From Solirubrobacter phytolaccae (lineage in GTDB: Bacteria; Actinomycetota; Thermoleophilia; Solirubrobacterales; Solirubrobacteraceae): a stretch of 64,000 bases of DNA. Positions 25,895-28,240 of this stretch are shown one piece after another. The notes beneath the pieces are model-generated. The model saw only the letters and a list, made by a program, of their open reading frames with translations, had not been told where the DNA came from and did no database searches. The stretch lies in assembly GCF_027587195.1 (NCBI RefSeq), contig NZ_JAPDDP010000029.1:1-64000 (forward strand), written 5' to 3'. The translations under genes and the position numbers were made by a program. Positions within the stretch are counted from its first letter, which is position 1. Every line of letters starts with the position of its first letter.

Positions 25895-26509
25895 ATGGAT
25901 GTAGCGGCGGCCCTGGCGACCGCGATTCTCATGTCCGCCTGCCCGGCGGAAACGCCGCCCGCGATGGCCCTCGACGGGGTCCCGCAGGTGCTGGTGGCGG
26001 GCCGTTCCTACGAGGTCGGGCTGGCGTCCACGGGGGCGGGAACGGCGGTGTCGGGCTGGACGCTCGGCGTGTTCGACCGGCTGGGGCGCGGCTGGTCGGC
26101 GGACCTGCCGTCGCTCGGGTTCCGGCAGGCGTTCAGCGTCGGCATGACGGGGGCGCCGTACGCGGTCTCGGGCGCGTACGTGGAGTCGCTGCTCGGTGGC
26201 GGGACCTGCACGCGCACGCTGTCGTTGTCGGTGCCGGTGGAGCGACGGGTGTTGGGCGTGGTCGCGTGCCGGCGGGGCGAGGTCGAGCCGCGGACGCTGA
26301 CGCTGGGCTGCGACGACGCGCAGCGGGTGCGGCTGCGCGGGCTCACGTGGCGCGGCTGGAACGACGACGTGGCCGTCGGGCGCGGCGCGGGTGGCGTGCG
26401 AGTCCGGCTGTCACGGCCGCGCGAGTGCGCCGAGCTGGACGGGTTCATCTACACGCGAGCGCGCGTGGACGGCCGGACCTACCGGGTGGACTGCCCGATC
26501 ACGGACTGA
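25895..26509 (+). CDS. Exported or membrane-anchored protein of unknown function
   Basis: 204 residues. A short hydrophobic N-terminus (MDVAAALATAILMSACPAE) could be a lipobox-type signal (MSAC). The body is beta-rich with repeated YEVGLAST, YAVSGAYVESL and TYRVDCPITD strands and four Cys. No family recognised. Its end overlaps the convergent LysR gene by 31 bp. Confidence 0.55.
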   Translation: MDVAAALATAILMSACPAETPPAMALDGVPQVLVAGRSYEVGLASTGAGTAVSGWTLGVFDRLGRGWSADLPSLGFRQAFSVGMTGAPYAVSGAYVESLLGGGTCTRTLSLSVPVERRVLGVVACRRGEVEPRTLTLGCDDAQRVRLRGLTWRGWNDDVAVGRGAGGVRVRLSRPRECAELDGFIYTRARVDGRTYRVDCPITD

Positions 26510-27408
26510 TTCGCGGCGGCCGCGGCGAGCGCCTTGCGGACCGCGAGGATCGCCGGCGATCGGGCGGCGGCGGTCCGCGCCGCGGTGAAGATCGTCCGCT
26601 CGACCTCCCCCTCGGCGATCGGGCGCGCCGCGACCTGGGGCGTGGCGGTGGCGATCAGCACGGGCAGGATCGTCACGGCCTGGCCGGAGGCGACGAGCGC
26701 GCGCAGGATCAGGCCGTCGTCGGTGCGGTGGTGGATGTCGGGCGCGAAGTTCCCGAGCCGGTTGCAGAGGTGGTCGACGGCCGCGGCGTGGCCCGTGCCC
26801 GGCTTGCCGGCCGCCCACGCGGCGTGCTCGACGGCGGCGAGCGGGATCGGGTCCTCGGTGGCGGCGAGCGGATGGTCGACCGGTACGACCAGGTGCACGG
26901 CCTCGCGCAGCAGGTCCTCCCGGTGCACGTCGTGGTGGCGCGGGACGGGCGTCACGTCGTACTCGCTGCCGACCACCAGGTCCACCTCGCGCGAGCGCAG
27001 GTCGGCGATCCCGGGCGCCGTCTCGTACTGCACGACCTCGACGCGCAGATCCGGCGCCGCGTCCGCCAGCGTGGCGAGCGTGCCGGGCAGGAGCGCGAGC
27101 GCGGGCGTCTGCAGGAACGCGAGGCGCAGGCGGCCGCGCGGCGCGTCGCTCAGTGAGGCGAGCTCGGCGCGGACGGCTTCGTCCTGTTGGAGGGCCTGCG
27201 CGGCGTGGTCGGCCAGCCGGTGTCCGGCGGGGGTGAGCTGCAGCGTTCGCCCGACCTTGCGCAGCAGCTGCGTGCCGGCTTCGCGCTCGAGCTCGGAGAG
27301 CTGGACGGAGACGGAGGACGGGCTGTAGTCGAGCGCCTCCGCGACGGCGGCGACGGTGCCGCGGCGGGCGAGCTCGTGCAGCAGGCGCAGGCGCCGCAGC
27401 TCCATCAT
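26479..27408 (-). CDS. LysR-family transcriptional regulator
   Basis: About 309 residues from the ATG pair at 27408/27405. The N-terminal winged HTH reads LRRLRLLHELARRGTVAAVAEALDYSPSSVSVQLSELEREAG, followed by a periplasmic-binding-like effector domain with two lobes (LRLAFLQTPAL, VDLVVGSEYDVTP). It is divergent from the split membrane protein gene 77 bp away, which is its likely target. Effector unknown. The upstream extension to 27804 is antisense to that gene. Confidence 0.88.
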   Translation of the reverse strand: MMELRRLRLLHELARRGTVAAVAEALDYSPSSVSVQLSELEREAGTQLLRKVGRTLQLTPAGHRLADHAAQALQQDEAVRAELASLSDAPRGRLRLAFLQTPALALLPGTLATLADAAPDLRVEVVQYETAPGIADLRSREVDLVVGSEYDVTPVPRHHDVHREDLLREAVHLVVPVDHPLAATEDPIPLAAVEHAAWAAGKPGTGHAAAVDHLCNRLGNFAPDIHHRTDDGLILRALVASGQAVTILPVLIATATPQVAARPIAEGEVERTIFTAARTAAARSPAILAVRKALAAAAANQSVIGQSTR

Positions 27409-27484
27409 CGTTCGGATTCTTGCACGGGTTGCGTTCGGAAACGTTCGCTGGAAGTGAATGGCTTTGTGACCGAAGGTGAAGGGC

Positions 27485-27892
27485 ATGGTCGTTCCGCTCC
27501 TCGCCGCTCCCACCCTGATGCTCGCCGTGACCGCCGTCGAACGCCGCGCCGGCCCGGCCGCCGCGGGGGTGATCGCGGCGGCGCCCCTGTCGATCGCGGT
27601 GATCGTGCTTGCTCTGGGTGCCGAGGGTCCCGCCGTCGCGGCGAGCGCCGGCGCGCACGTGGTCGCGCAGGTCGCGTTCGCGCTGGCCTTCGCGCTCGTG
27701 ATCGTCCGGCGCGGTGCGCTCGTCGGGCTGGCCGCGGCGTCATCAGCGTTCGTGGCCGTCTCGCTGCTCGTCGCGCTCGTCCCCCTCTGGCTGGCCACCG
27801 CCACCGCGGTGCCCGTCCTCTTTTTATCGTCCTGGGAACATAAAGCCCCAGGTCCTTTATCTTCCCGGGAACCTAAACGTCCAGGACGTTAA
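27485..27892 (+). CDS. N-terminal half of a membrane protein interrupted by palindromic repeats
   Basis: About 135 residues with four hydrophobic segments from the ATG at 27485 (GAAGG upstream). AGPAAAGVIAAAPLSIAVIVLALG resembles LGPAAAGIVAAFPSLSATFALLVA in the following ORF, so the original protein had two homologous halves. From 27821 the frame enters a 78-bp repeat block, reads WEHKAPGPLSSREPKRPGR and stops at 27890-27892. The next ORF is in the same frame. No family recognised; probably under LysR control. Confidence 0.55.
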   Translation: MVVPLLAAPTLMLAVTAVERRAGPAAAGVIAAAPLSIAVIVLALGAEGPAVAASAGAHVVAQVAFALAFALVIVRRGALVGLAAASSAFVAVSLLVALVPLWLATATAVPVLFLSSWEHKAPGPLSSREPKRPGR

Positions 27893-27900
27893 ACTTCCGG
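27823..27900. repeat. Tandem 33-bp palindromic repeat inside a membrane-protein gene
   Basis: Two 33-bp units (27823-27855 and 27856-27888) match at 25 of 33 positions, and a third, decaying copy starts at 27889. Each holds a near-palindrome of the form TTTA-n2-TTCCCGGGAA-n2-TAAA and a second one centred on CCAGG (AACGTCC-A-GGACGTT in the second unit). The block is unlike the flanking GC-rich coding DNA and carries the in-frame TAA. It looks inserted. Confidence 0.65.
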
Positions 27901-27928: not shown

Positions 27929-28240
27929 GTGATCGTGTTCGGGATCGTCGGCGTGTCGCTGGTCACGGCCGACCTGCTCGGGCCGGCGGCGGCCGGGATC
28001 GTCGCCGCGTTCCCGTCGCTCAGCGCGACGTTCGCGCTGCTGGTCGCGCGGGCGCGCGGGGTGGACGCGGCGGCGTCGGCGCTCGGCGGGCTCGTCGTCG
28101 GGCTGCGCGGCTACTTCGCGTTCTGCCTGGTCGTGGCCGGCACCGGGTGGGTCGCGCTGGGCGTCTTGGCGGCCGTGGCGATGAATTGCGGACTCGGGCG
28201 CCGTCTGAGCTTGCATGGCACTTCCCGAGATCGTCACTGA
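27929..28240 (+). CDS. C-terminal half of the interrupted membrane protein
   Basis: 103 residues from GTG at 27929. Coding character runs back in frame to about 27899 (GEPVDARVGAV), directly after the repeat block. It contains about three hydrophobic segments (VFGIVGVSLVTADLLGPAAAG, then SATFALLVARA and YFAFCLVVAGTGWVALGVL) and mirrors the first half. It may be a separate translated unit or the remnant of one inactivated gene. It overlaps the start of the DUF899 gene by 26 bp. Confidence 0.5.
   Translation: MIVFGIVGVSLVTADLLGPAAAGIVAAFPSLSATFALLVARARGVDAAASALGGLVVGLRGYFAFCLVVAGTGWVALGVLAAVAMNCGLGRRLSLHGTSRDRH

What the first reader, a model, noticed from the sequence alone, without database searches (positions are those of the whole stretch)
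27821..27900. Tandem palindromic repeat interrupting a two-halved membrane protein in frame
Two 33-bp units (25 of 33 identical) with TTTA...TTCCCGGGAA...TAAA and CCAGG-centred palindromes lie between two homologous membrane halves. Both halves are in the same frame, and removing about 78 bp would restore one gene. The repeat is unlike local DNA and brings the only stop codon. It may be a mobile or replicating palindrome family, or a processed or bypassed element.
Basis: seen in the sequence. Interest (0 to 1): 0.65.

Follow-up and report, generated by a model that had tools for sequence, protein, structure and literature searches.

The report
RAYT-linked palindrome repeats inside genes
The odd repeat is two copies of a small mobile-looking DNA palindrome (a REP element paired with a RAYT transposase) sitting in frame inside a membrane-protein gene of the soil bacterium Solirubrobacter; the kind is known, but here related species carry different palindromes at the same gene positions, as if the core of the repeat were swapped in place.

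Summary
Window 27823-27900 holds 2.3 units of a 29-nt palindrome, GAASNTAAA-NNN-CCWGG-NNN-TTTANSTTC, joined by 4-nt linkers (period 33). It is a genus-level family: 56 copies in this genome, 53 in a sister species, 8 and 1 in two others, none in three, and no control hits. It is best explained as a REP element of a REP/RAYT system. The same genome encodes a Y1-type REP-associated tyrosine transposase flanked on both sides by the palindrome. Other Solirubrobacter RAYTs are mostly flanked by palindromes with the same TAAA feet and CWG apex but a different stem, and each genome is rich mainly in the class of its own RAYT. The one congener without a RAYT has none. Of 25 in-gene copies, 24 lie in the single stop-free phase and encode E-x-K-x-P-G-x-L. 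About 40 copies end genes with their own TAA. In the window gene every relative examined has a palindrome at the same linker. This genome gained about 36 bp there, and one copy carries an in-frame TAA; bypass is not supported. The unusual part is that orthologous sites keep position and arm letters while the core differs by species.

The parts
27823..27831 (+). remnant 3' arm (TTTATCGTC) of a third, truncated palindrome unit
   Evidence: matches the TTTANSTTC arm of the consensus
27832..27835 (+). 4-nt linker CTGG
27836..27864 (.). unit 1, 29-nt REP palindrome GAACATAAAGCCCCAGGTCCTTTATCTTC, core of the GCCCC/GGCCC class that flanks this genome's RAYT
   Evidence: 0 mismatches to the pattern
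27865..27868 (+). 4-nt linker CCGG (29 + 4 = period 33)
27869..27897 (.). unit 2, 29-nt REP palindrome GAACCTAAACGTCCAGGACGTTAAACTTC, CGTCC class shared with the single unit of the G002 orthologue; 1 mismatch to the pattern
27890..27892 (+). in-frame TAA inside unit 2, the only stop between the two halves
27476..27892 (+). first half of the membrane-protein gene, ending inside unit 2; the REP-encoded tail is EHKAPGPLSSREPKRPGR
   Evidence: orthologues
27929..28240 (+). second half of the gene, same frame; the ORF from a GTG at 27929 has no obvious ribosome-binding site
   Evidence: Solirubrobacter orthologues read through both halves

Best explanation
The block is a short tandem of REP elements belonging to a REP/RAYT system of Solirubrobacter. 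The unit is a near-perfect 29-nt palindrome that can form a hairpin with a CWG apex. A chromosomally encoded RAYT (TnpA-REP, HUH/Y1 single-strand nuclease), flanked by the same palindromes, is inferred to recognise and spread it. Copies persist in three kinds of place: in frame inside genes, where only one phase is stop-free and the element adds an 11-residue linker peptide; at gene 3' ends, where the element's own TAA becomes the stop, sometimes for both genes of a convergent pair; and between genes. In the window gene the site is old in the genus. This genome carries a CGTCC unit shared with G002, gained about 36 bp containing a unit of its own RAYT's core class, and has an in-frame TAA in the older unit that splits the gene. 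SHOWN: the family, the RAYT and its flanking copies, class-to-RAYT correlation across genomes, phase and frame statistics, shared sites with different cores. INFERRED: that RAYT moves the elements, that cores are replaced in place, and that the split is recent.
For: RAYT (PF01797; best NCBIfam hit NF047646 REP_Tyr_transpos, E 1.6e-21, 77 bits, just under its 80-bit cut-off) at G000:C149:21180-21587, with palindromes at C149:21104-21132 upstream and at about 21696 overlapping its 3' end. The G002 RAYT has the same layout with CGTCC cores. HUH (NHVHLL) and YxxxNP (YLIDNP) motifs are present. Class counts follow RAYTs: AGGGACWGTCCCT 26/10/55/56/55 in G000/G002/G001/G004/G006 and 0 in G003 and G005; GGGGTCAGGCCCC-type about 110 in G005, exactly the flank of its RAYT; G003 has neither RAYT nor any REP class. 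Interior copies: 24 of 25 in phase 0. Gene ends: 41 of 50 stops are the TAA at element positions 6-8, and 11 copies stop both convergent genes. At nine in-gene sites all 25 between-species spacings agree modulo 3. Orthologues of the window gene. The peptide falls in the only low-confidence internal loop of a model of the G002 protein.
Against: The canonical GTAG/GTGG guide tetranucleotide of most RAYT-linked REPs is absent; the foot is GAAS on both sides. NCBIfam scores of the four RAYTs scanned are below the curated cut-off, although the Pfam scores are above Pfam's. G000 also has many CGTCC copies without a CGTCC-flanked RAYT in the assembly, and G004 has 43 GGGGCC copies without a matching RAYT flank. 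No transposition or cleavage was observed.
Confidence: 0.9

Rival explanations
1. The palindromes are protein-binding operators or chromosome-organising sites kept in place by selection, and the RAYT association is incidental.
For: Positions are often conserved between species, and many copies sit at gene ends, some just upstream of a gene.
Against: RAYT genes in several genera are flanked by class-matched palindromes, copy number follows RAYT class, and 25 copies lie inside unrelated ORFs such as ispE-like, PabB/PabC-like, biotin carboxylase and glycosyltransferase genes.
Confidence: 0.05
2. Bidirectional transcription terminators at gene ends, a few of which drifted into coding sequence.
For: About 40 of roughly 105 G000/G002 copies overlap gene 3' ends, and 11 serve convergent pairs; the unit is a palindrome with A/T-rich feet.
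Against: No T-run follows the stem; about a quarter of copies are well inside genes and in frame; the RAYT association is unexplained.
Confidence: 0.04
3. On the sub-question of shared sites: they reflect insertion hotspots (flexible linkers, gene ends) into which each species' own REP inserted independently, rather than one old element whose core was replaced.
For: At the L104 site G000 and G004 have an element while G002, the closer relative, and G001 do not; elements in different species can differ in length and copy number at a site.
Against: The arms of 16 orthologous G000/G002 pairs are more alike than in random pairings (120 of 160 against a mean of 99.5, 0 of 20,000 permutations), while the cores are not (p = 0.27). 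The L007/L041 pair is identical in both arms with different cores. In G002 the ispE-like site keeps an old 3' arm around a nested new palindrome.
Confidence: 0.4
4. The block is excised or bypassed at RNA or translation level, so a full-length protein is still made in this genome.
For: Both halves stay in the same frame, and the second half shows no faster protein evolution than in G002 (dN to G004 0.18 against 0.26).
Against: The other in-gene copies are simply translated in the open phase; the block contains one stop codon only; a recent stop explains the lack of decay equally well.
Confidence: 0.03

Closest known systems
REP/RAYT (TnpA-REP) systems of Pseudomonas, Stenotrophomonas and E. 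coli (Nunvar 2010, PMC2817692; Bertels and Rainey 2011, PMC3116915)
   Same: Y1 transposase gene flanked by copies of a short dispersed palindrome; low-copy RAYT; palindrome class follows the RAYT; tandem or clustered copies
   Different: No GTAG/GTGG foot (GAAS on both sides instead); near-perfect palindrome with CWG apex and TAAA feet; 33-nt head-to-tail period rather than inverted REPIN doublets
Intragenic and gene-terminal GTAG/CGTC REPs (Di Nocera 2013, PMC3733652)
   Same: REPs inside ORFs encoding short peptides; REP termini supplying stop codons; different REPs at about the same recB site in two Xanthomonas species
   Different: Here the stop is TAA from inside the arm, and shared sites with different cores are seen at many loci rather than one
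Orthoswitch of REP classes at orthologous RAYT loci (Nunvar 2013, PMC3686654)
   Same: Orthologous RAYTs of related strains flanked by different REP classes (G000 and G002 RAYTs, 75% identical)
   Different: That model leaves old dispersed REPs to decay; here dispersed orthologous sites also carry a different core while keeping arm letters
Rickettsia palindromic elements (RPE)
   Same: Palindromes inserted in frame in protein genes, with length compatible with the frame
   Different: By my recollection RPE-1 elements are about 100-150 bp and not linked to a RAYT; the units here are 29 nt and RAYT-linked

Membership tests
REP/RAYT (TnpA-REP) system | genome encodes a Y1/HUH transposase of the RAYT class (HUH motif, YxxxNP) | tested here: met
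   PF01797 above cut-off, NF047646 best NCBIfam hit but under its 80-bit cut-off
REP/RAYT (TnpA-REP) system | RAYT gene flanked on both sides by the palindrome | tested here: met
   G000 C149, G002, and most other Solirubrobacter RAYTs
REP/RAYT (TnpA-REP) system | short palindrome, many dispersed copies, specific to the host species | tested here: met
REP/RAYT (TnpA-REP) system | copy number of a class depends on the cognate RAYT | tested here: met
   exceptions are CGTCC in G000 and GGGGCC in G004
REP/RAYT (TnpA-REP) system | GTAG/GTGG guide tetranucleotide at the hairpin foot (canonical REPs) | tested here: not met
   foot is GAAS; GTAG occurs only in odd copies. PMC6006769 describes RAYT subclasses (2.6, class 3) without this foot, so the broad system fits but not canonical GTAG REPs
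REP/RAYT (TnpA-REP) system | RAYT binds and cleaves the single-stranded palindrome | not testable with these tools
   needs biochemistry
REP/RAYT (TnpA-REP) system | inverted doublets (REPIN/BIME) | tested here: inconclusive
   mostly single copies, a few 33-37 nt tandems; near-perfect palindromes have little orientation
Rickettsia palindromic elements | in-frame insertion in unrelated ORFs | tested here: met
Rickettsia palindromic elements | element of about 100 bp or more | tested here: not met
   29-nt unit
Intrinsic terminator | stem-loop followed by a T-run | tested here: not met
   sequences

The most novel reading that the evidence does not exclude
REP sites in Solirubrobacter act as fixed addresses: when a lineage's RAYT changes specificity, the palindrome cores at old sites, including sites inside genes, are replaced in place by the new class (gene conversion, hairpin exchange, or nested insertion followed by loss), while position, arms and reading frame are kept. 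REP families would then evolve in concert across the genome rather than by fresh insertion and decay.
Probability: 0.5. Interest if true: 0.75.

Novelty: new variant of a known kind. Interest (0 to 1): 0.52.

Why it matters
How REP elements spread and how a RAYT and its REP change together are open questions; Nunvar 2013 could only speculate about the mechanism of the switch. Here a few closely related genomes show the same genic sites carrying different RAYT-type palindromes with conserved arms, which makes in-place replacement against re-insertion directly testable by sampling strains. It also appears to extend RAYT/REP systems to the Solirubrobacter lineage: a 2018 survey reported only IS200-type relatives in Actinobacteridae (PMC6006769), and my literature searches found no report from Solirubrobacter. 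It shows a unit whose only stop-free phase and 33-nt period suit life inside genes.

Tried and rejected
The exact-pattern scan of named genomes found only S. taibaiensis plus one Prevotellaceae contig, probably chance. Pfam gave no family for the membrane protein, and a Foldseek PDB search of its moderate-confidence model gave nothing significant. Hairpin folding of the block as DNA was only mildly better than shuffles (z = -1.7) and was not used as evidence. A decay signature of the second gene half was looked for and not found. RNA-family searches were not run because the copies lie in coding sequence and gene ends and have a DNA transposase partner. Some loci have multi-unit or complex sites and were left out of the permutation test.

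Full report
OBSERVATION. The block at 27821-27900 is as described: two 33-nt direct repeats, 76% alike, in a 49% G+C patch inside a 75% G+C gene. The natural unit is a 29-nt palindrome, GAASNTAAA-NNN-CCWGG-NNN-TTTANSTTC, with 4-nt linkers. Unit 1 is 27836-27864, unit 2 is 27869-27897, and a truncated arm precedes them. The frame from 27476 runs through unit 1 and stops at TAA 27890-27892 in unit 2; the same frame continues to 28240.

FAMILY. A search of the whole genome with 120 bases around the block gave 29 matches. The pattern with up to 3 mismatches gave 56 copies in this genome (G000), 53 in congener G002, 8 in G004, 1 in G005, 0 in G001, G003 and G006, and 0 for the reversed control. With up to 2 mismatches only G000, G002 and G004 matched among 146 family members.

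PARTNER ENZYME. PF01797 finds RAYT-type genes in six of seven Solirubrobacter genomes and none in G003. NCBIfam's best model is REP-associated tyrosine transposase; the scores of the four scanned are below its curated cut-off. The G000 RAYT on contig C149 is flanked by two palindromes of the window family, and the G002 RAYT by two CGTCC copies. The remaining RAYTs are mostly flanked by palindromes with the same TAAA feet and CWG apex but other stems: AGGGACWGTCCCT, GGGGTCWGACCCC, GGGGTCAGGCCCC; one G005 RAYT (L144) showed none. RAYTs of some other genera also have CWG palindromes nearby. Genome counts follow the RAYTs: AGGGAC type 55-56 in G001, G004 and G006, 26 in G000 (which has such a RAYT), 10 in G002 (which has none), and 0 in G003 and G005. 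G005 has about 110 of exactly its RAYT's type. Exceptions are CGTCC copies in G000 and GGGGCC copies in G004, for which no cognate RAYT was seen, and 17-20 GGGGTC copies in G000 and G002.

WHERE COPIES SIT. ORFs were called with a simple codon-usage caller trained on the window. For G000 and G002 together, outside the window gene, 25 copies lie inside ORFs, 39 overlap gene 3' ends, 38 are intergenic and 3 are at 5' ends. Of the interior copies 24 of 25 are in phase 0, the only phase without a stop, and encode E-x-K-x-P-G-x-L; the exception is 35 nt from a predicted start. At gene ends 41 of 50 stops are the TAA at element positions 6-8, and 11 copies stop both convergent genes. Host genes include an ispE-like GHMP kinase, a chorismate-binding/aminotransferase fusion, a biotin carboxylase, histidine kinase and glycosyltransferase genes (the ispE-like name is my reading of the GHMP domains).

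SHARED SITES, DIFFERENT CORES. Orthologues of the window gene carry a palindrome at the same linker in every congener examined: CGTCC in G002, GGGCC in G004, a degenerate GTGCC version in G001 and G006, and GGGGTCAGACCCC in G005. Relative to G002 the window gene has about 36 bp more: an extra unit of this genome's RAYT class next to a shared CGTCC unit that carries the stop. Blasting flanks of G000 and G002 copies against each other gave about 20 orthologous sites. In 16 clean pairs the arm letters are alike beyond random pairing (120 of 160, random mean 99.5, 0 of 20,000 permutations) while cores are not (p = 0.27). Nine in-gene sites compared with G001, G002 and G004 show different RAYT-type palindromes at one site in several species and empty sites in others, and all 25 spacings keep the frame. 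At the ispE-like site G002 has a GGGGTCAGACCCC palindrome nested inside an older element whose 3' arm matches G000.

MECHANISM. The best reading is a RAYT-linked REP family that persists inside genes where phase and loop position allow. Movement by the RAYT is inferred from linkage and class correlation and was not observed. Whether shared sites were re-hit independently or had their cores replaced in place is open. The arm statistic and the nested case favour replacement; the L104 site, present in G000 and G004 but absent in G002, favours re-hitting.

THE WINDOW GENE. In the G002 protein model the REP-encoded peptide falls in the one low-confidence internal segment (residues 122-129) between two helical halves. 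The second half in G000 shows no accelerated protein change, so the split is recent, the halves still work, or the stop is an assembly error; these cannot be told apart here.

PRIOR ART. REPs and RAYTs (PMC2817692), REPs in ORFs and as stop codons, and two Xanthomonas recB genes with different REPs at about the same site (PMC3733652), and class switching at RAYT loci (PMC3686654) are known. A survey reported only IS200-type relatives in Actinobacteridae (PMC6006769). No paper on Solirubrobacter RAYTs was found. The system is therefore a new variant of a known kind, with many-locus core switching at conserved genic sites as its unusual feature.

Noticed in passing
L010:1505-1533, L019, L054, L068, L083, L096 and others: One palindrome supplies the TAA stop codon to both genes of a convergent pair (11 cases in G000 and G002).
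   Followed up: partly
L138:1991-2025, L140:1991-2025: The RAYT genes themselves end in REP-encoded residues (KRPGRLSWGA in G002, KGPGPLSFAA in G000).
   Followed up: partly
L156 (G002:C1:1631140-1631630): A GGGGTCAGACCCC palindrome is nested inside an older palindrome within an ispE-like gene, with the frame kept.
   Followed up: partly
L189, L190, L192, L196, L200: RAYT genes of other genera in the family also have CWG-apex palindromes nearby, with other feet (for example TGAAAG, GGAAAG, GTGAG, TGAG).
   Followed up: partly
L050:2411-2439: Single exact match of the 29-nt pattern in a Prevotellaceae metagenome contig; probably chance.
   Followed up: no
G003 (whole genome): The one congener without a RAYT has none of the palindrome classes searched for.
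   Followed up: yes
window 26479-27408: The window gene lies divergent to what looks like a LysR-type regulator gene on the minus strand; the gene itself has no Pfam family.
   Followed up: no
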